A stretch of DNA of 64,000 bases, from the NCBI GenBank assembly GCA_032622095.1, contig CP136063.1:67159897-67223896 (forward strand), in the 5' to 3' direction. The notes beneath the pieces were generated by a model, which ran no database searches, was not told the DNA's origin, and was given only the letters and a program-made list of their open reading frames with translations. Shown here piece after piece: positions 1 to 51,915 of the stretch. Source of the stretch: Siphonodentalium dalli (Eukaryota; Mollusca; Scaphopoda; Gadilida; Siphonodentaliidae). The number at the start of each line of letters is the position of its first letter. The first letter of the stretch is position 1. Position numbers and translations under genes: made by a program.

Positions 1-290
1 CAAAAATTTCAAAAACTTCAAAAATTTCAAAAATTTCAAAAACTTCAAAAAACTTCAAAAATTTCAAAAATTTCAAAAACTTCAAAAATAAGACCCCGCC
101 GGCGGACCCCGGCGGCGGCGGCGGCGGCACCGCCGCAGTAAAATACCGCAATGCCGCCGCCGCCGGGGTCTTATTTTTGAAATTTTTGAAGTTTTTTGAA
201 GTTTTTGAAATTTTTGAAATTTTTGAAGTTTTTGAAATTTTTGAAGTTTTTTGAAATTTTGAAGTTTTTTGAAATTTTTGAAGTTTTGGG
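1..290. repeat. Long imperfect palindrome with simple-repeat arms and GC-rich centre
   Basis: The left arm (1-98) is a run of aaatttc/aaacttc units ending in aataagacccc. The right arm (about 158-290) is its reverse complement, starting ggggtcttattt and running into gaaatttttgaag units. The centre (99-157) is built of GCC/GGC triplets. The left arm touches the window edge, so its full size is unknown. It could be a viral or element terminus, a fold-back, or an assembly palindrome. Confidence 0.8.
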
Positions 291-293
291 TTT

Positions 294-348
294 TTGGGAA
301 TATTTTAGTACAACCAATTTTAGACCCAAAGATTCTATTTTTAGATGC
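294..348 (+). repeat. 55-bp direct repeat, left copy
   Basis: It begins ttgggaatattttagtacaa and ends ctatttttagatg. A copy differing by about one base lies at 4615-4669 in the same orientation. Both copies follow T/G-rich ttttgaa-type simple sequence. The pair brackets the 4.3-kb cassette that carries the two virus-like ORFs. Confidence 0.85.
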
Positions 349-361
349 AATAATCGATTTT

Positions 362-367
362 TATAAG
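362..367 (+). promoter_or_regulatory. TATAAG box upstream of the 430-747 ORF
   Basis: TATAAG lies 63 nt before the ATG at 430. The same hexamer occurs before the next ORF (901-906) and after it (1554-1559), which suggests a repeated core promoter in this cassette. The role is inferred. Confidence 0.35.
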
Positions 368-429
368 AGGCGATAAACTTTCTAAAATAAAATGCAGAAA
401 AAAGAGTGACTTGTACATTTTGAAGAAAC

Positions 430-747
430 ATGTCGATCCCGTATATTCCAGCAGATCTTGAAATGTGGAGAAAACATTTCAGAGATATGGTTGATGGGAA
501 GTTAATACCAGATAATCAGGGTCGATACTTTATTGACAGAACTAAAAATAGTGATAGTGAAGAAGACGTTCTAAAACCACATATTAACGTGGTGACACCC
601 CTCGCTCAAGCGATTGAAATGGCTAAGGCCGAAGTTGCAGCAAATAAGTTGACAAACACACGTAAAGCGTCCAAACAAACCAACAAGAGAGTTGGAGGTT
701 TGTCTAATAATAAGAAGAAAATGAAAAGACCAGTGTCATACGATTAG
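430..747 (+). CDS. Small basic-tailed protein, Polinton/adintovirus-like virion or accessory protein (putative)
   Basis: Complete 105-aa ORF from ATG to TAG with no obvious intron. The N-terminus reads MSIPYIPADLEMWRKHFRDM, so a P-Y-I/V-P element is followed by W-x2-HF-x2-M. A short acidic stretch (DSEED) follows, then VTPLAQAIEMAKAE, and then a lysine/arginine-rich C-terminal third (about residues 73-101). This combination recalls small proteins encoded next to capsid genes in Polinton/Maverick and adintovirus elements. That assignment comes from remembered family features, not a search. The basic tail would suit DNA or core association (inference). The ORF is intact although it sits in repeat-rich DNA, which suggests a young insertion. 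No capsid, ATPase, protease, polymerase or integrase gene is seen nearby. Alternative: an unrelated lineage-specific protein. Confidence 0.5.
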   Translation: MSIPYIPADLEMWRKHFRDMVDGKLIPDNQGRYFIDRTKNSDSEEDVLKPHINVVTPLAQAIEMAKAEVAANKLTNTRKASKQTNKRVGGLSNNKKKMKRPVSYD

Positions 748-900
748 CCAAATCATGAATGAATACATAGAGTACCATACTGATAAATTGGCATTAATTG
801 AATCACCGGCGGTCAAATATCTATACCCTAGCCCCGGGACGAACGTACTCTTAGCGCGACGGTTGTATACCACACCTTATTCTCTCTTTTTATCACTACT

Positions 901-906
901 TATAAG
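901..906 (+). promoter_or_regulatory. TATAAG box upstream of the zinc-finger ORF
   Basis: TATAAG ends 29 nt before the ATG at 936. The following stretch, cttccaataattcgcgataat, recurs nearly unchanged around 4102-4123 (cacgataatacac), where no ORF follows. This looks like a duplicated promoter region. Confidence 0.35.
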
Positions 907-935
907 AGTGATGGTTCTTCCAATAATTCGCGATA

Positions 936-1505
936 ATGCACGGGTGTGATTTATGTGGCATTATTTTATCGACGAACTACAATCTACAAAGACATAAACA
1001 GATTAAACACGGAGTTATGTCCGAGACAAAACCAACTCTCTTCGGAGAAGATACCGATGAATCTGACGAAGCGGGTCTAGATTCAGATGAAGATGAACGG
1101 GGAACGCTATCAGATTCAGAAGATGGTAATGTCGTCGGTAGTAGAACGGTATTCGGTCTTAAGAAAGCTGCGCGATGTGTGAACGAGATGGACACATTCA
1201 AAAGTATGATGAAACGCGTCACCAATGATGTGAAAGAAGAAGAGAGCATTTCGGGAGATGAGAGCATGTCGGGAAAAGAGGATACCATCGACACAGAGTT
1301 TGCTCTGTTTCTCAAAAGTTATAGACGATTAATAGAATACCAGTATCGATTGAAAACATCACGCATACATACCATGATCATGAAGAAAATGGTCAAACTG
1401 ACCAAACACGGATATAATAATGAATGGGCTGCAGATGAAGCGATGAGAAAATTCAAGAAACTCTTAGAAGTAAATCTAACGGTCGAAGATTCAGACAATG
1501 ATTAA
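936..1505 (+). CDS. C2H2 zinc-finger acidic protein, virus/element-associated (putative)
   Basis: Complete 189-aa ORF. Residues 4-25 form one C2H2 finger, C-x2-C-x12-H-x4-H (CDLC ... HKQIKH). A strongly acidic, serine-rich linker follows (about residues 34-67, with DESDEA and DSDEDE). After a second acidic segment (EEESISGDESMSGKED), a predicted helical C-terminal part (about residues 119-185) is rich in K, R, Y and L and contains RRLIEYQYRL. A poly(A) signal starts 6 nt after the stop and a TATAAG box lies just upstream, so the unit looks like a compact intronless gene. Single-finger acidic proteins of this type are known beside small virion genes in Polinton-like elements. That link is inferred from layout and the neighbouring ORF. 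MSETK at 1018 is an alternative start that would remove the finger, and the 936 start is preferred because the finger is intact. Confidence 0.55.
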   Translation: MHGCDLCGIILSTNYNLQRHKQIKHGVMSETKPTLFGEDTDESDEAGLDSDEDERGTLSDSEDGNVVGSRTVFGLKKAARCVNEMDTFKSMMKRVTNDVKEEESISGDESMSGKEDTIDTEFALFLKSYRRLIEYQYRLKTSRIHTMIMKKMVKLTKHGYNNEWAADEAMRKFKKLLEVNLTVEDSDND

Positions 1506-1510
1506 ATTTC

Positions 1511-1516
1511 AATAAA
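1511..1516 (+). terminator. AATAAA poly(A) signal after the zinc-finger ORF
   Basis: Canonical AATAAA begins 6 nt after the TAA stop of the 936-1505 ORF. The very short 3' UTR fits viral or mobile-element genes better than typical animal genes. Confidence 0.55.
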
Positions 1517-2329
1517 CTTCATCAACATGTTATTCTCGTCTTCGTTATATATCTATAAGTGGGGAGGGGGTTTCACCAATATTACATCACGTCCCTTACC
1601 GCGTGTCACTTTAACATTCCACACCGTGCGTGTATTATCCCCCTTTAATTATGTCATAGCATTGGTACATAGAAGACTGTATAACACTATGCCTATGTCT
1701 GTATCTGTTGTCACACCGTGAGTGGATTGTCCGCCTTTAATGATGTCATAGCGTGTGTATATGCAAGACAGTATATAACCCTATGATAATGCCTGTAGCT
1801 GTTGTTGGTAAGATGTGAAATATAAATTTCAAGGTTCAATTCATTCGTGTAGTAATTTTGTATATGTTCAACGCTCTTCATTCGTGCGCTTGTATTGTTA
1901 ACATTCATTCATAATGAGTGTCCCTTTAGAGTGTCTTGTGTTCCTTTAAGATTCAAACACCAATATTACATCACGTCCCTTGTTTCGTGTCACTTTAACT
2001 CCTTGAGTGTATTGCCCCTTCGAATGATGTCATAGCATGGGTACATGTAAGATAGTATAACACTATGACTATGTCTGTATCTGTTGTTGGTAAGATGTGA
2101 AAATATAAATTTCAGTTCATTCGTGTAGTAATTTCGTATATGTTCAACGCTCTTCATTCGTAAGAGTAATTACCAACTGGAAGTTGTACCATTTTTGATA
2201 AACATCGGATTTGCTCATCAGACGATAAGCTGACAATATTTACGTATGGTCTAATTAGATTCATGCATAAATGTAAGGTAATTTTTGTTATGGTCAAGTT
2301 TTTTGTTAAGACCATGTTCTAACATAGAT

Positions 2330-2531
2330 CGATAAATAAGTTAAAGGTCATTATATTCCACAGTCAAATCTATTGGTGATCGAATTTGATAACTATTTTA
2401 TTGGAACAACTAAGAGTATTATTTACGTGAGATCAATGAGTCCAATTATTATAAATAATAAATTGCAGGCATCGGTGGATACCCGATTGCCACATTTAGT
2501 GATCACTTGATAAACTGATAAAATGTCCAAG
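2330..2531 (+). repeat. ~200-bp direct repeat, copy 1 (copy 2 at 3472-3673)
   Basis: It starts gatcgataaataagttaaag and ends aactgataaaatgtccaa. The copy at 3472-3673 is nearly identical, with a handful of substitutions. Both contain gatcacttgata or gatcacgtgata. Together with the repeats above, this shows a duplication of about 1.1 kb inside the cassette. Confidence 0.85.
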
Positions 2532-2913
2532 TGACGTACTATAATGAGCAAAAAAATGAGTTGACCTTCGGCTTCGTCCCGATTGGGTACTGAGCTGACA
2601 CCGGGGATAAATTGACCAATGACTGCTATTGTATCCTTTTGACAGATATGCGTGCGCAGACTCGTTTGATGTTCGCTATCGCATTACTATGTTTTAATAG
2701 CCGAGCCTTCACTTCTCGTCTGACTCTCTTACCGACAAGACCTGTCTACACAGTACTTCTCCGGCAGACTATTCATCCACTGATAGGCCTACATACAGGT
2801 ATGCCCTAAATAATGGACTGCTTAACCACAGCAGAATTATAGGTAACTTTTCTTTTCTAAACATCGAACTTGTCTGAACCTATCAATTGATACAATAACA
2901 GTGATATAATGTT

Positions 2914-3147
2914 ACATCTCATTTTTTTGCTCATTTGCTCATTTTTTTGCCCATTTGCTCATTTTTTTGCTCATTTGCTCATTTTTATTGCTCATTTGCT
3001 CATTTTTTTGCTCATTTGCTCATTTTTATTGCTCATTTGCTCATTTTCTTGCTCATTTGCTCATTTTCTTGCTCATTTGCTCATTTTCTTGCTCATTTGC
3101 TCATTTTTTTGCTCATTTGCTCATTTTTTTGCTCATTTGCTCATTGA
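2914..3147 (+). repeat. ~20-bp minisatellite of ttgctcattt units
   Basis: About 11 copies of a 20-21-bp unit (tttgctcatttgctcatttt) run head to tail. Open frames through it give only repetitive leucine/phenylalanine peptides and are not genes. Confidence 0.9.
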
Positions 3148-3471
3148 TTGGTGCATACTCAAGAGTCATAGACCTAACATCCAATGTACGTTAATGGTGT
3201 CATAGCGTGGGTACATAGAAGACTGTATAACACTATGCCTATGTCCGTATCTGTTGTCACACCGTGAGTGGATTGTCCACCTTTAATGATGTCATAGCGT
3301 GTGTACATGCAAGACAGTATAATACTATGATTATGTCTGTAGCTGTTGTTGGTAAGATGTGAAATATAAATTTCAAGGTTCAATTCATTCGTGTAGTAAT
3401 TTCGTATATGTTCAACGCTCTTCATTCGTGCGCTTGTATTGTTAACATTCATTCATAATGAGTGTCCCTTT

Positions 3472-3673
3472 AGATCGATAAATAAGTTAAAGGTCATTAC
3501 ATTCCACAGTCAAATCTATTGGTGATCGAATTTGATAACTATTTTATTGGAACAACTAAGAGTATTATTCACGTGAGATCAATGAGTCCAATTATTATAA
3601 ATAATATATTGCAGGCATCGGAGGATACCCGATTGCCACATTTAGTGATCACGTGATAAACTGATAAAATGTC
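3472..3673 (+). repeat. ~200-bp direct repeat, copy 2
   Basis: Second copy of the 2330-2531 unit. It directly follows a copy of the tgtcatagcgtg repeat, whereas copy 1 is separated from its upstream copy by unrelated sequence. Confidence 0.85.
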
Positions 3674-4440
3674 CAAAGCGTAAGTATGAATGTGGGGCGA
3701 TAAGTGGTTATTACGTAATGTTGTTATAACAATGACACCGAAGCAATTTCTATCATTGAGTGACCTGGACGTATTATGTATGCATGTTTTGGATAACTAA
3801 TTATCGTGTTAATGCTAACAATGACACAGTTTATCAACCTTAATTGATACTAACCAGTTAAACAACTAATTCTGCTCAGACATTAAATCGATATGTTTTC
3901 TGAATGGCATATAATTGTGAACGGGAATATAATAGAATTCATTTGGTAAAGCAAGGTGTGACACATACATTGTTACCCACAATGTCGTGTGTGATCACGT
4001 GTACATAATATGTTCCATCGAATATGACAATTCATTCTGGGGGTTGTAATTTCGCATTACCCTTTTCGTCCACACGTGATTCAACATAGTACATCTCAAT
4101 ACTTCCAATAATTCACGATAATACACACCTGTCATATACTCAATAACTTCATCTGGGATAGAGAAGTTAAGAATAAACGCTCTTTATTATTTATGTAAGA
4201 GTAATGGTGTCTATTTTCAGGTATGACAATTATATATGTATGAACTGCGTCCGATAAACACTGGAATGTATGCATTCATACCGATGGTCACAATGTCCAA
4301 TAAAGCTATTTCTAAACATCGATTAATAAATACATTGAAACATTGGTTGAACAAAAAAAATAACGAAAGATATTACACGCAAATAATTTAACATTCGACA
4401 TTTTAATATCGAGATTATCAGAAACCGAAAACTCGTTATA
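3674..4440. other. No gene recognised
   Basis: AT-rich unique-looking sequence with no convincing ORF. It includes cttccaataattcacgataa (about 4102-4121), an echo of the promoter region before 936. Confidence 0.4.
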
Positions 4441-4614
4441 AATTTTTTATTTAAACTTTTTTTTTAGAGAAATAATTTTGAGGGTTTTTTGAAATTTGGG
4501 AATTTTGAAACTTTTGTTTTTGGAAAAAAATAATTTTGGGATTTTGAAATTTTTTGGAAAAATAAATTTTGGAAGTTTTGAATTTTTTTTTTGGGTTTTG
4601 ATATTTTGGAAGTT

Positions 4615-4669
4615 TTGGGAATATTTTAGTACAACCAATTTTAGACCCCAAAGATTCTATTTTTAGATG
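4615..4669 (+). repeat. 55-bp direct repeat, right copy
   Basis: Partner of 294-348. It is preceded by a degenerate T-rich tract (4440-4614) of ttttgaa/ttttgga units like the one before the left copy. Confidence 0.85.
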
Positions 4670-4739
4670 TGAAGTCAACGAGACATCTATTCTTCTCAGA
4701 GTAGAGATTCATGGCACGATCTATTGAATTAAATTATGA

Positions 4740-15005: not shown

Positions 15006-15105
15006 NNNNNNNNNNNNNNNNNNNNNNNNNNNNNNNNNNNNNNNNNNNNNNNNNNNNNNNNNNNNNNNNNNNNNNNNNNNNNNNNNNNNNNNNNNNNNNN
15101 NNNNN
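15006..15105. other. Assembly gap of 100 N
   Basis: Exactly 100 N, the usual placeholder for a gap of unknown size. Translations across it are meaningless, and order or distance across it is uncertain. Confidence 0.99.
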
Positions 15106-33333: not shown

Positions 33334-33990
33334 GTTCTGCGAGACGTGCCAACTTGAGCCACGACAAGGGTGACAACGGCACATTGACTACGATTGACGA
33401 GTATGTTTCTACCTTCGTCGACAAATCTTTACTAGCGTCAACACCGAAGCCAAAATACAAAATTGCTGCATCCAGCACAAACCAGATGACAAAGTCAGTG
33501 ACGAGCATGGGGATACGGATGATATCCAACATGGAAACGACCATAGAGATACAAGAAATAACACTGTGGAACCTCATCTAAACTCACAGGCTGCATCCGC
33601 CACCGATGTCAAAATTGCCACATTCCTGAACTTTTCTCATCATGATGATAATATCCACAACGGACCAACAGGAGATCCATGTGAACCTCGCACACAACGA
33701 AACGATGTATCTGATGACAAAACCTCAGCTGCAAGTGAATCTTACGGTATCGGAAATCTCCCTGAACATGAGTTTTGAAATCATGATGAGTTTCGTTGGG
33801 AAAAATTTCACTTAGTTCTACTGAAGCGAGCGTGCGCTCTTACCTAAACAAGAGAGGTGTGATTCCAACCTTCATAAAATTGTTTAAAAGCTCCATTCGA
33901 GGAACCCAATCTGCTCGCGTGATAGTACATTCCAAAGATGCCAAAATGTTCACGACTCACGGATCCACCACAATCACCCGACAACTATAA
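33334..33990 (+). pseudogene. LINE ORF1 remnant
   Basis: Three overlapping open stretches in different frames (to about 33581, 33566-33778, 33796-33990) make up a disrupted ORF1. The last holds IKLFKSSIRGTQSARVIVHS, resembling the conserved end of ORF1 proteins in CR1-like LINEs. The serine/threonine-rich N-terminal part is unalignable by eye. ORF1 would bind element RNA. At least two frameshifts make it non-functional. Confidence 0.6.
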
Positions 33991-33992
33991 TC

Positions 33993-36900
33993 ATGGATAG
34001 CTTTCGGATGGAACTAAGAGTACTTACATGGAACGCAAGTGGTGTGATAATAAACTCAGCCTACTTATCAAAACTCCTTAATGTGATGAACCTTGATATC
34101 GTAGGGATATCAGAACATTGGTTAGACACCAACGATCTATATCGCCTGGATAGTCTGTGCAGAGATTATATGTCGATTTCGAAACCTGGCAGGCAGATAA
34201 AAACTAAAACTGGCGGTTGTTTCACACGTGATGGTGTGGCTATATTCGTGCGACGCAGCCTGATGGAAAATTGTACCCATCTTCAATTAACAGATCAGAG
34301 ATTCATCGGGATCCACTTTCGTTTGAACTCCAACATGCATCTAACTGTTATTCAGGTATACCTCCCGAGATCCAGCCATAATGATTCTTATTTTAGTGAG
34401 TGCCTTGAATCGCTGGGGGGAAATCTAGTTTTTTCCCCACATGCTGCAATCAGATCGCCAACTCTCATCGATCATATCGTTATACCGAACTCACTAAAGG
34501 ATCTCGTCTTAGCTTGTGAAATATCTTGCGATAAACCGACAAACACATCCTGCCATGTTCCAGTAACTTGCTGTCTGCAGATACCAGGAGAATACGCTCC
34601 CCCAAAAAGCTGTCATGTTAAAAAGCGATACAACTGGAAGCTCTTGGACATTCAAAAATATCATTCGTTCTTGGACTCAATATGCTGTCATCCCGTGCCT
34701 GGGATTCGCTGTAAATTGGAACTATCTAATGTGTATCGTGATATTGTGAGCGCGCTGTGTGACGCTGCAGATTTGTCTATTAATGCAAAAAGCTTCAATA
34801 AGAATCTCAAACCTTTCTGGAGCAAAGAACTTGAATCCATACACAAGCAGTCGAAAAACTGTTGACATAAATGGATCATCGATGGCAAACCCCATTCAAC
34901 GTGTTCCCAGTCATACACAGAAAACAAAGCTGCGAAACGCGAGTTCCGCAGTGCTCTTCGCCTTGCTGTGCGCCATCACGATCAGAAAGTTTATGACAAC
35001 CTAGAATACTGTGCTCGGAACGACCAGCAATCGTTTTGGAAGCTGATTAATGCAGACAAAAAGAAGTGCACCGTTGCCTCCGAGATGGAATTCGACGGGC
35101 ATATTGTGCGTGACCCTAGCATTATAATATCGGGTTGGAGAGACTATTTCTCAGCTCTATATGAAGAGTCTCCCCACGAAAACCCAACGTTCGAAAGTTA
35201 TGTGACCACTTCACTGAAGGAGATCTTTGACCCTGAACATGAACATTATTCATCCAAAAACATGTGTCAACCAATCACTATAGACGAAGTCCAAGATGTT
35301 ATCAGAACATTGAAGATGAACAAATCTGGAGGCATTGACAATGTTACCAATGAACATCTAATTCATAGTACTGAATCACTTCTTACATTGTTATGTGTGC
35401 TTTACAACGGAATTATATACTTGGAGTATGTACCACCAGAAATGAAGATTGGACTGATTGTGCCTTTATACAAAGGAGAACCAAAACCACACCACAAGCC
35501 GGATAGTTACCGTGCAATAATGCTCCTGTCTGCATTATACAGGGTGTTCGAAGGTGTTATAATGAATCGAGTGCGGCGGAGTTAGCTATGTTCGAGTTTT
35601 CCCAACGAACAACAAAATGGATTCCAAGAAAATATAAGCTGCATGATGACATCATTTGTATTGCAAGAGGCTGTTTCGTATGCGTCAGATATTGGATCTC
35701 GTATCTTCGTTTGCTTTCTCGATTCCCAAAAGGCGTTCGATCGGGTGTGCATGGCATGCTGGTATGATATTGAAACTACACGAATTCGGAATTCAAGGAA
35801 AACTCCTGAGAGTCATACAAAACATGCATATGGAAGCCACCAGCAGAGTTGTGTATAATGGTGCCTTATCCGACCCCCTTACTATTTCACAAGGAACCAG
35901 GCAAGGGGCCGTCAGCTCACCATTCTTGTATCTTTTATACATCAACGAACTACTTCACAACTAAAAGACTCACAGGACGGTATGATGATTCATAACGTTT
36001 CGTGTGCTGCTCCGACAACGGTGAATGATATTGCAATTATGTCTCTAACAAAGACTGGGCTCGATAATATGTTGTCCACATGCCACAAATACAGTAGACA
36101 GTGGCGATTCAATTTCTCCAACACAAAAAGTAAAGTTGTTGTCTTCAATGAGACCATTCGCCAGCACGGACTACCTAGAACTTGGCAACTTGGGGATAAT
36201 GTCTTAACTGAAGACACAGAATGCACACATCTTGGAATTCTTCAGGGCAAATTTGGTAACACGTTTAAAACGCTCTCAAAACATTGCACATAAGATGCGT
36301 ATTGCCTACTTTGCCTTAGCTGGAAAACGCACTATCCTGAGTCATGTTCGCCCGCTGTCATGACTAAACTGTTCAAAAGCATCGTGTTACCGAAAGCTCT
36401 CTATGGATGTGAGTTACTTCCATTAGACAACATTGCTGCCATGTAGAACATCGAGAGGTCATTCCGGGTTTGCGTAAAACAAATCCAGTCATTACCGACA
36501 CGGACTCCAACCATTCTAGCTCTAGGTCTCTTGGGAATAATGTCAGCCGAACAAGAGATTCATTTTCGAAAACTGTGTTTTTTGGAAAAACTTGTACATT
36601 TGCCAATTGGCCACCAAACGCCACTTAACCCTTTGAGTGCCAGGGGCCGATATTATCGGCCCTAAACCTATACAATAAGTCTGTTAAAGAATATAATAAA
36701 ATATATTAAAATTGTAAAAAATTGTAAAAAATAAAAAAATTGTTAAGCCAATGCATTCTCTTATATATGCGAGGCGACCTATGGTCGACTCGCATATATA
36801 AGAGAATGCATTGGCACAGGGTATATGGGTTGATACAAAAATCGGACCTGGCACTCAAAGGGTTAAACTATTTCTTTTCAAATCTTACCAGGTAGTGCTA

Positions 36901-37527
36901 TTTAGTCGGCATGTGTCTGGATTTGTCAAAGATATTATCTGCATTCTGAATAAATATGATCTGTATTCGTTCCTTACTGTGTATATGGAGAACGGTATCT
37001 TTCCTTCTAAATGCCAATGGAGTAAAATTGTTCGCGAGAAAATAGAGACTGACTACTGTGCAGAATGGAGACAATCTACAGCAGATAGAGCTGAACTTTC
37101 ATTACTGCGCGATTGCCATATTCAACCTAATAGACTTTGGAACTTGTGGGAGTTGTGCAGGACCAATCGCCCATATACTGATGCACTCAAAAATCTAGGA
37201 AGATTGTTGAACAAGTCAACTTACCCAAACAATCTATTGTGTAAATATTGTTCGCACTATTATGATCACGAATTTGAACATGCACTTTCGACATGCAGAG
37301 CTGACGTTATGATCCATATGCGGGATGTCTACTGGACTAGGATCATCAACAAATATGGCATCGATCTCTCATCACTACCCATACCAGAACTGATGGCTCT
37401 AATTCTTGGTGGACCTCCGTCAGTGCCATTCGCGGGATCTGCAGAGAACATCGAATATGTAATCCTTGATTCAGCAATATTTCTGCTACATGCTTGTAAA
37501 AATATGGGGAACAACACGACAATATGA
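33993..37527 (+). pseudogene. LINE ORF2 remnant: endonuclease-reverse transcriptase
   Basis: The N-terminus shows an apurinic-type endonuclease (LTWNASG, then DIVGISEHWL, later LIDHIVIP). The middle of the domain, including the GDFN region, is missing after ECLESLGG. After a TGA at 34863 the same frame continues into reverse transcriptase: MNKSGGIDN, IVPLYKG, YRAIML, FLDSQKAFDRV (motif A, catalytic Asp kept) and QGAVSSP (motif B). The motif C position reads APTTVNDIAI where family members have YADD, so the first catalytic Asp is Asn. A TAG at 35583, a +1 shift near 35750, a return near 35975 and further stops at about 36291 and 36444 follow. The C-terminal part (36867-37527) contains a CKYC...H...C cluster. 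In an active element it would nick DNA and copy RNA into the site. Here it is dead. Confidence 0.85.
36625..36866. mobile_element. TTAA MITE inserted in LINE ORF2
   Basis: TTAA at 36625-36628 and 36863-36866 bound CCCTTTGAGTGCCAGG and CCTGGCACTCAAAGGG, which are perfect inverted ends. One hairpin module is at about 36747-36815. Removing the element with one TTAA puts ...HQTPL directly in frame with KLFLFKS, so this is a clean insertion that postdates the LINE. Confidence 0.92.
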
Positions 37528-50884: not shown

Positions 50885-51915
50885 CTCTTTACCAGCCCTG
50901 CCATCGAAACATAGTTGAGCCTGCCCTGCCACCCAGACATAGTTGAGCCGAGTCCAGCTCTTTACCTGCCCTGTCAGCAAAACATAGTTGAGCCGAGTCC
51001 AGCTCTTTACCTGCCCTGTCAGCAAAACATAGTTGAGCCTTCCAGCTCTTTACCGGCCCTGTCAGCAAAACATAGTTGAGCCGAGTCCAGCTCTTTACCG
51101 GCCCTGTCAGCAAAACATAGTTTAGCCGAGTCCAGCTCTTTACCGGCCCTGTCAGCAAAACATAGTTTAGCCGAGTCCAGCTCTTTACCTGTCTGACATC
51201 CAAACATAGTTCAGCAGAATCCAGCTCCGAAGTTTACCTGCCCTGACATGAATCACATCCAAACATAGTTCAGCCTTCAAGCTCTTTACCTACCCTGCCA
51301 TCCAAACATAGTACCCCTAACTGCCAGCTCTTTACCTACCCTGCCATCCAAACATAGTACCCCTAACTGCCAGCTCTTTACCTACCCTGCCATCCAAACA
51401 TAGTACCCCTAACTGCCAGCTCTTTACCTACCCTGCCATCCAAACATAGTACCCCTAACTGCCAGCTCTTTACCTACCCTGCCATCCAAACATAGTACCC
51501 CTAACTGCCAGCTCTTTACCTACCCTGCCATCCAAACATAGTACCCCTAACTGCCAGCTCTTTACCTACCCTGCCATCCAAACATAGTACCCCTAACTGC
51601 CAGCTCTTTACCTACCCTGCCATCCAAACATAGTACCCCTAACTGCCAGCTCTTTACCTACCCTGCCATCCAAACATAGTACCCCTAACTGCCAGCTCTT
51701 TACCTACCCTGCCATCCAAACATAGTACCCCTAACTGCCAGCTCTTTACCTACCCTGCCATCCAAACATAGTACCCCTAACTGCCAGCTCTTTACCTACC
51801 CTGCCATCCAAACATAGTACCCCTAACTGCCAGCTCTTTACCTACCCTGCCATCCAAACATAGTACCCCTAACTGCCAGCTCTTTACCTGCCCTGCCATC
51901 CAAACATCATAGTTG
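50885..51915 (+). repeat. 45/46-bp minisatellite, ~21 units in two subtypes
   Basis: The first part (about 50895-51230) has 45-bp units of type gttgagccgagtccagctct. The second (51309-51890) has about 12.5 nearly identical 46-bp units of type tagtacccctaactgccagc. All share ctgccagctctttacc or ccagctctttacc. The 46-bp part is far more homogeneous, which indicates recent expansion. Reverse frames give only repeat peptides. Confidence 0.92.

What the first reader, a model, noticed from the sequence alone, without database searches (positions are those of the whole stretch)
294..4669. Compact virus-like cassette bounded by a 55-bp direct repeat
Seen: two intact intronless ORFs, TATAAG boxes at 362, 901 and 1554, AATAAA 6 nt after the second stop, and nearly identical 55-bp direct repeats at both ends, each preceded by ttttgaa-type simple sequence. 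Knowledge: short UTRs and small basic and zinc-finger proteins occur in Polinton/adintovirus elements. Inference: a remnant or satellite of such an element, or one unit of a larger tandem or viral insertion extending left of the window.
Basis: partly seen in the sequence, partly recalled or inferred. Interest (0 to 1): 0.8.

Follow-up and report, generated by a model that had tools for sequence, protein, structure and literature searches.

The report
Mirror-image satellite of an animal Polinton
A 9-kb mirror-image DNA parasite, present in many near-identical copies in an animal-like genome, carries the end sequences and one gene of larger virus-like elements (Polintons/adintoviruses) in the same genome but none of their replication, integration or capsid genes, so it looks like a satellite that borrows those from its helper.

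Summary
Left of the window lies a mirror-image arm (98.6-99.3% identical). The whole, 9,107 bp (C3:67155486-67164592), is a giant palindrome ending AGAAGAATAG...CTATTCTTCT with a 6-bp target duplication (CAGAGT); all 11 copies examined have one. An exact 39-mer of ORF2 occurs 467 times in the 2.2-Gb genome; of the 100 listed, 86 form head-to-head pairs.

The genome also holds PolB elements (one measured: 16,316 bp). Pieces of several copies show rve-chromodomain integrase, adenain-like protease, P-loop ATPase, capsid-like protein, TBP and PC4. They share the satellite's ends, its 55-bp repeat and ORF1 (72-76% identical, dN/dS about 0.33). ORF2 (one weak C2H2 finger) was absent from the helper pieces read.

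At the ends, arms of one copy are nearly identical while copies differ from each other far more than in the core; in a tree some ends fall among helper ends, suggesting exchange during shared replication.

Verdict: a palindromic, gene-carrying, non-autonomous satellite of an adintovirus/Polinton. Helper dependence, virions and ORF functions are inferred. The papers searched showed no such element.

The parts
1..4696 (+). part of the palindromic satellite inside the window (central palindrome plus complete right arm); the left arm runs from C3:67155486 to the window start
1..89 (-). (caaaaattt)n array, inner end of the left arm
90..172 (.). GC-rich imperfect palindromic core (AAGACCCC...GGGGTCTT) at the centre; lies in the opposite orientation in copy L086
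173..287 (+). (tttttgaa)n array, inner end of the right arm
292..347 (+). inner copy of the 55-bp repeat, homologous to the subterminal part of the helper's terminal repeat
356..813 (+). segment 82-83% identical to helper DNA: end of the upstream helper frame, ORF1 and start of the capsid-like gene
430..747 (+). ORF1, 105-aa basic protein; 72% and 76% identical to the helper protein encoded next to the capsid-like gene; 48% identical over 64% of its length to metagenome protein P0001 (precomputed Pfam domain PF07382, recalled as a histone-like family)
755..814 (+). first 20 codons of the helper's 421-aa capsid-like gene, after which the similarity ends
936..1505 (+). ORF2, 189 aa: one weak N-terminal C2H2 match, acidic middle, helical C-terminus in a low-confidence model; not found in the helper pieces read
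1511..1516 (+). AATAAA after ORF2
1574..2161 (+). repeated units without long ORF (ATGATGTCATAGC...TATAAC type), in part duplicated at 3191-3474
2325..2530 (+). 206-bp unit, duplicated at 3471-3676 (98%)
2793..2852 (+). truncated fragment of a repeat found many times elsewhere in the window, ending where helper-like terminal repeat begins
2853..2918 (+). inner part of the helper-type terminal repeat
2918..3145 (+). 20-bp tandem repeat (CTCATTTTTTTGCTCATTTG)n, 11.3 copies
3679..4696 (+). terminal inverted repeat shared with PolB-carrying elements (window copy: 78-96% in the stretches compared)
4613..4669 (+). outer copy of the 55-bp repeat
4687..4696 (+). right terminus CTATTCTTCT
4697..4702 (.). 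right copy of the 6-bp target site duplication CAGAGT

Best explanation
It is the right half of a 9.1-kb palindromic, non-autonomous mobile element: a satellite-type derivative of the adintovirus/Polinton (Maverick) elements that live in the same genome. Shown: two mirror arms around a GC-rich core; helper-type ends and 6-bp target duplications; ORF1 homologous to a gene beside the helper's capsid-like gene; an extra gene, ORF2; no PolB, integrase, ATPase, protease or capsid gene recognised in either arm. Inferred: a helper of about 16 kb supplies integrase and protein-primed polymerase (and perhaps capsids) in trans, acting on the shared ends. The palindrome arose when a deleted helper genome was copied back on itself at the ttttgaa array and GC core. 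Strands displaced during protein-primed replication can then fold into a full-length hairpin and be recopied, which keeps the arms alike, and ends can be exchanged with co-replicating helpers. ORF1, kept under selection after the split, is most likely a DNA-binding core or minor virion protein; ORF2 probably binds DNA.
For: Mirror arm: window 244-4696 matches L100 8897-4487 in two pieces at 99.3% and 98.6%. Ends plus 6-bp target duplications in 11 of 11 satellites examined, and CGGGTG on the helper at C5. Exact 39-mer 467 times (235 +, 232 -), reversed-pattern control 0; the 100 places listed form 43 head-to-head pairs and no tail-to-tail pair; 50 head-to-head and no tail-to-tail pairs among the 150 scored ORF2 matches. 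Helper content: PolB PF03175; in L135 rve 1.7e-14, Chromo 8.6e-8, Peptidase_C5 5.9e-4, TBP 3.9e-32, PC4 5.6e-15. Shared ends: 13 of 13 PolB elements examined match satellite arms (one over 91 bp only), exact terminus found in 9 of 13. ORF1 homolog 72% (E 3e-50) and 76%; dN/dS 0.32 and 0.33. Outer 750 bp: arms within a copy median p 0.0056 against 0.072 between copies, partner nearest for 19 of 22 arms, 0 of 5000 shufflings as close. Core uniform (ORF2 DNA mean p 0.0007 in 20 best-scoring loci; inner non-coding median 0.0042 between copies) while the outer 430 bp differ by a mean of 0.109, and in a tree two satellite groups fall among helper ends. Window satellite against helper L150: terminal-repeat stretch 96% but ORF1 region 83%, Fisher p 2e-7.
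Against: Mobilisation in trans, self-priming and packaging are not observed. The copies compared come from the best-scoring ORF2 matches, so core uniformity is biased; the low-complexity arrays inflate divergence of the ends. By plain distance the nearest end of each satellite is another satellite (11 of 11; satellite-satellite mean 0.109, satellite-helper mean 0.123, minimum 0.054), so end exchange rests on the tree and on one helper contrast; in the tree S_L120 has a long branch and one inner node has support 0.413. Against helper L135 the contrast is weak (p 0.02). Over the roughly 3.2-kb arms, ranked by best alignment piece, the partner arm is first for only 13 of 22. In the inner non-coding part the means within and between copies are alike (0.046 and 0.050), though the medians differ (0.0011 and 0.0042). 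One copy (103) is misaligned (p 0.209). 14 of the 100 listed 39-mers are unpaired, and all five other centres examined have lost something: L091 one inner array, L086 184 bp of one arm, L092, L087 and L099 parts of one or both arms. The source of ORF2 is unknown. The capsid-like protein matched no Pfam or PDB entry.
Confidence: 0.82

Rival explanations
1. A plain foldback/MITE-like deletion derivative: the ends are moved by helper integrase as a transposon, the palindrome is a by-product of deletion and inverted duplication, and ORF1 and ORF2 are passengers without function; no particle is involved.
For: Two-TIR and extended-TIR derivatives are common in Galileo (PMC3573991, passages). Palindrome, internal tandem repeats and absence of integrase fit. 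High ORF identity could reflect a recent burst alone. ORF1 is broken or partial in some copies: 7 broken and 2 partial against 23 intact.
Against: ORF1 has diverged from two helpers with dN/dS 0.32 and 0.33 at dS 0.47 and 0.40, which a passenger should not show unless most change was on the helper side. In the same 20 selected, partly overlapping loci ORF2 was intact 20 times and partial 7 times.
Confidence: 0.35
2. The arms are kept alike after insertion by host gene conversion, as in chromosomal palindromes, and the viral replication cycle plays no part.
For: Large palindromes undergo arm-to-arm conversion (recalled). Within-copy identity of the ends alone fits.
Against: Does not by itself explain why ends are diverse and partly helper-like while one core is uniform, nor helper end 96% against ORF1 region 83% for L150.
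Confidence: 0.28
3. The 4.4-kb arms are the long terminal repeats of a larger autonomous virus whose middle has been lost from the copies seen.
For: Some DNA viruses have long terminal inverted repeats containing genes (recalled). Only 150 of 3319 candidates were scored.
Against: Gaps between paired ORF2 copies are 0.9-3.3 kb in both lists, and the PolB-element pieces read have ORF1 in the middle, shorter terminal repeats and no ORF2.
Confidence: 0.06
4. A host gene, or two unrelated host insertions lying head to head.
For: Intronless ORFs with a polyadenylation signal; a fragment of a repeat common in the window lies inside.
Against: 467 exact 39-mers, one 6-bp duplication around the whole palindrome in 11 of 11 copies, ORF1 homologs inside PolB elements.
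Confidence: 0.01

Closest known systems
Adintoviruses / Polintons (Mavericks)
   Same: Ends, 55-bp subterminal repeat, 6-bp target duplication and ORF1 are shared with PolB elements whose pieces also carry rve(chromo) integrase, adenain-like protease and P-loop ATPase in the same genome.
   Different: The element itself has none of the defining genes, is palindromic, 9.1 kb instead of 16.3 kb, and carries ORF2.
Tlr elements of Tetrahymena, once proposed as a non-autonomous Polinton derivative (PMC4028283, passage, which argues against that)
   Same: The idea of a Polinton derivative without its own polymerase is not new.
   Different: Tlr has its own capsid, integrase and ATPase genes according to that paper (passages); this element has none of these.
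Foldback-type and two-TIR derivatives such as Galileo 2T/2RT copies (PMC3573991, passages)
   Same: Long inverted repeats with internal tandem repeats, deletion derivatives moved in trans.
   Different: Here the parent is a virus-like element with PolB and integrase, and the arms carry ORFs, one with low dN/dS against the helper.
Palindromic left-end genomes of adenovirus incomplete particles (the inverted-duplication structure is recalled; PMC12090768 passages, say only that such particles preferentially hold the genome's left end and cite Daniell 1976)
   Same: Protein-primed linear DNA; one end duplicated in inverted orientation would give replicating ends on both sides.
   Different: Those are by-products in culture (recalled); this one is heritable and abundant in a genome.
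Virophages and phage-inducible chromosomal islands (recalled)
   Same: A smaller element living off a larger helper and keeping its own genes, one of them a variant of a helper protein encoded beside the capsid-like gene.
   Different: No own capsid gene found, interference with the helper untested, ends shared with the helper.
'Ziftr' zinc-finger genes of an adomavirus and some adintoviruses (PMC11071296, passages)
   Same: A small zinc-finger protein in such a virus group.
   Different: No sequence comparison was possible; ORF2 is not in the helper pieces read.

Membership tests
Adintovirus/Polinton (the helper elements) | PolB of the viral/organellar, protein-primed type | tested here: met
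   PF03175 best E 1.5e-26, open frames of about 950 and 1,310 aa; 0 of 14 control genomes; protein priming itself not tested
Adintovirus/Polinton (the helper elements) | rve integrase with C-terminal chromodomain | tested here: met
   rve 1.7e-14, Chromo 8.6e-8 in L135
Adintovirus/Polinton (the helper elements) | terminal inverted repeats and 6-bp target duplication | tested here: met
   16,316-bp copy at C5, CGGGTG on both sides
Adintovirus/Polinton (the helper elements) | adenovirus-like cysteine protease | tested here: inconclusive
   Peptidase_C5 E 5.9e-4, 20.0 bits against a cut-off of 21.3
Adintovirus/Polinton (the helper elements) | packaging ATPase | tested here: inconclusive
   weak P-loop matches, AAA_22 2.2e-4, Pox_A32 0.0032, all under cut-off
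Adintovirus/Polinton (the helper elements) | double jelly-roll major capsid protein and penton | tested here: inconclusive
   421-aa protein named capsid-like from recalled resemblance and position; no Pfam, PDB or viral-contig match; penton not tested
Adintovirus (the helper elements) | OTU-like N-terminal domain on PolB | tested here: inconclusive
   615-aa frame at the PolB N-terminal side in L133 has no Pfam match
Autonomous Polinton (the window element) | encodes PolB, integrase, capsid, ATPase, protease | tested here: not met
   only ORF1, ORF2 and 20 codons of the capsid-like gene recognised in the arms
Non-autonomous derivative of these helpers | shares helper ends and target duplication length | tested here: met
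Non-autonomous derivative of these helpers | moved by helper proteins | not testable with these tools
   needs an experiment
Satellite virus | packaged with helper proteins; depends on helper co-infection | not testable with these tools
   no particle or read data
Satellite virus | own gene absent from helper | tested here: inconclusive
   ORF2 not found in L133, L135, L150 or the PolB loci L121-L132; other helper lineages not read
Foldback-type element | long inverted repeats with internal tandem repeats and no transposase | tested here: met

The most novel reading that the evidence does not exclude
A long-lived lineage of satellite viruses of an animal adintovirus, endogenous in more than two hundred copies. 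Its palindromic genome multiplies by hairpin self-annealing on the helper's protein-primed machinery. It swaps ends with whichever helper lineage it meets, and it keeps its own version of a helper core/virion protein (ORF1) plus a zinc-finger regulator (ORF2) to divert packaging or transcription, working like a phage-inducible island or virophage.
Probability: 0.28. Interest if true: 0.88.

Novelty: new variant of a known kind. Interest (0 to 1): 0.72.

Why it matters
Polintons/adintoviruses are thought to be endogenous viruses, yet I found nothing in the papers searched on gene-carrying satellites of them. Such a satellite, with ends matching helpers of the same genome, would be indirect evidence that these elements replicate as linear genomes in shared cells, would record which helper ends were used together, and would extend helper-satellite conflict to this animal virus group. 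The helper's own TBP and PC4 genes raise the separate question whether it runs its own promoters.

Tried and rejected
No relatives of ORF2 or of ORF1 alone in the protein collection or viral contigs. A degenerate zinc-finger scan of viral contigs gave 58 loci; best phmmer E 0.022 to ORF2, a different kind of protein by eye, judged unrelated. A degenerate scan built on ORF1 gave 21 loci; best phmmer E 0.026 and profile E 0.36, judged chance. ORF1 profile A2 and the capsid-like protein gave no viral-contig relative. AlphaFold models were poor (ORF2 mean pLDDT 42.7; ORF1 65.1); a fold search with ORF1 gave nothing under E 0.67; ORF2 was not searched. Rfam at gathering thresholds and the tRNA scan of the window were empty. 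The idea that TATAAG boxes mark viral promoters was dropped. The repeat piece at 2793-2852 was first read as a simple insertion; its end coincides with the start of helper-like repeat, so it marks a joint. A second dN/dS method (YN00) failed; only NG86 is given. In one search one comparison line pointed at a file that did not exist and gave nothing.


Full report
What was checked. The two ORFs, the AATAAA, the TATAAG sites and the direct repeat are in the sequence. The repeat is 292-347 against 4613-4669, one indel in 57 columns. ORF2 is longer than any ORF in 300 Markov simulations; ORF1 is not remarkable by length. TATAAG occurs at chance frequency (4 against 3.3 expected). Neither ORF alone has a relative in the protein collection. 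ORF2 has one weak C2H2 match (E 0.0031, 18.3 bits, cut-off 25.2).

The whole element. The window begins in the middle of a palindrome: ttttgaa-type arrays in opposite orientation around a GC-rich core. The genome could be searched: 2.23 Gb in 9 contigs, window at C3:67159897. Left of it lies the mirror arm, matching window 244-4696 in pieces of 99.3% and 98.6%. The ends are AGAAGAATAG and CTATTCTTCT, flanked by CAGAGT on both sides, total 9,107 bp. For ten further head-to-head pairs, chosen by me from the best ORF2 matches, the ends and 6-bp duplications were found every time, so 11 of 11 (50 pairs were known); lengths are 8.3-10.8 kb.

Abundance. 150 of 3319 first-look ORF2 candidates were scored; all 150 were 98-100% identical, one with an internal stop. 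They contain 50 head-to-head pairs with gaps of 0.9-3.3 kb, one same-strand neighbour and no tail-to-tail pair; 50 were unpaired within that list. An exact 39-mer occurs 467 times, reversed control 0. The 100 places listed hold 43 head-to-head pairs, one same-strand neighbour pair, and 14 unpaired. Of five other centres examined, all have lost something compared with the window copy: L086 has 184 bp missing from one arm and shows the core in reverse orientation; L091 lacks one inner array; L092, L087 and L099 lack parts of one or both arms.

The helpers. A Pfam PolB search gave 149 matches from 69 scored of 1596 candidates, many in intact frames of about 950 aa, others of about 1,310 aa; control genomes 0 of 14. 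An element of the first class at C5 starts with the same terminus and has the 55-bp repeat and terminal repeat of the window element. It is 16,316 bp long with CGGGTG on both sides. The right part of another copy (L135) encodes, besides the end of PolB, a PC4-like and a TBP-like protein, an adenain-like protease, a 421-aa capsid-like protein, an ORF1 homolog (72% identical, E 3e-50), a 153-aa frame, an rve integrase with chromodomain and a P-loop ATPase. A third copy (L150) has the same order, ORF1 at 76%, TBP and PC4 again, and no ORF2. Thirteen PolB elements were examined at the expected end: all matched satellite arms, one over 91 bp only, and nine had the exact terminus. The name 'capsid-like' rests on recalled resemblance and gene position, not on a match.

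What the satellite kept. Window 356-813 is 82-83% identical to helper DNA that spans the end of the 153-aa frame, ORF1 and the start of the capsid-like gene; after 20 codons of the latter the similarity ends. The inner 55-bp repeat lies just upstream. A profile of both ORF1 forms found one metagenome protein (173 aa, E 3.4e-12, 48% identity over 64% of ORF1) with the same N-terminal motif, a lysine-rich tail and the precomputed Pfam domain PF07382, recalled as histone-like. That makes a DNA-condensing core protein the likeliest role for ORF1. dN/dS between satellite and two helpers is 0.32 and 0.33; between the two helpers 0.56.

How it may work. Over the outer 750 bp the arms of one copy are far more alike than arms of different copies: median 0.0056 against 0.072, partner nearest for 19 of 22, 0 of 5000 random pairings as close (copy 103 misaligned and left in). 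Over the longer arms, ranked by best alignment piece, the partner is first for 13 of 22. The inner part is nearly uniform: medians 0.0042 between and 0.0011 within copies, although the means are alike (0.050 and 0.046); ORF2 DNA has a mean of 0.0007 in the 20 best-scoring loci. The outer 430 bp of 11 satellites differ by 11% on average. In a tree with 11 helper ends, one satellite (long branch, support 0.958) and a group of four (0.997) fall among helper ends, while six form their own group (0.928); by plain distance, however, the nearest end of each satellite is another satellite. The window satellite is 96% identical to helper L150 in a terminal-repeat stretch but 83% in the ORF1 region (p 2e-7); against L135 the contrast is weak (p 0.02). 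The simplest account, inferred, is shared protein-primed replication: ends are recopied or exchanged with helpers, and displaced palindromic strands fold back and are recopied whole. Host gene conversion remains a rival for the arm identity.

Known and new. The helpers meet the integrase-chromodomain part of the adintovirus definition in PMC11071296 (passages); the OTU-domain and hexon parts stayed inconclusive. They match the Polinton gene list of PMC4028283 in PolB and integrase, with weak protease and ATPase matches (passages). rve integrases typically leave 6-bp duplications (PMC12220804, passages). A Polinton derivative was once proposed for Tlr and is doubted in PMC4028283. Derivatives made of long terminal repeats are known in Galileo (PMC3573991, passages). 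Adenovirus incomplete particles preferentially hold the left end (PMC12090768, passages); their inverted-duplication genomes are recalled. Searches for non-autonomous, defective or palindromic Polintons showed no description (listings only, open-access library). The kind (non-autonomous derivative) is known; the coding, palindromic form with helper-type ends appears new.

Noticed in passing
L135:2217-3406 and L150:2150-3300: Two of two helper copies read in this part encode a TATA-binding protein (Pfam TBP E about 4e-32 in both; PDB TBPs 1e-24 for L135) and, just before it, a PC4-like protein with two matched stretches. Listing searches combining Polinton or adintovirus terms with TBP/PC4 showed no report of it.
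   Followed up: partly
L124-L132, L134 (e.g. C7:133250608, C9:149526415): A second class of PolB elements with open frames of about 1,310 aa; the one 7.8-kb flank read (L134) showed no similarity to the satellite.
   Followed up: partly
L105-L112, outer ends: Four of eleven satellites share a different end variant, with a second copy of the 55-bp repeat core just before the terminus in 7 of their 8 arms.
   Followed up: partly
window 33888-37527: Perhaps a non-LTR-like retroelement: an endonuclease-like frame (PF03372 E 0.0019, under cut-off) followed by frames that look reverse-transcriptase-like by eye (the one tested had no Pfam match).
   Followed up: partly
window 51280-51907: 46-bp tandem repeat, 13.7 copies at 99% matches, in a 2-kb bin with strong GC skew (-0.29).
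   Followed up: no
window 5529-64000, many places: Short repeat families with more than 20 related copies in 64 kb; apart from the fragment at 2789-2852 they do not appear in 1-4696.
   Followed up: partly
window 15006-15105: A run of 100 N, probably an assembly gap.
   Followed up: no
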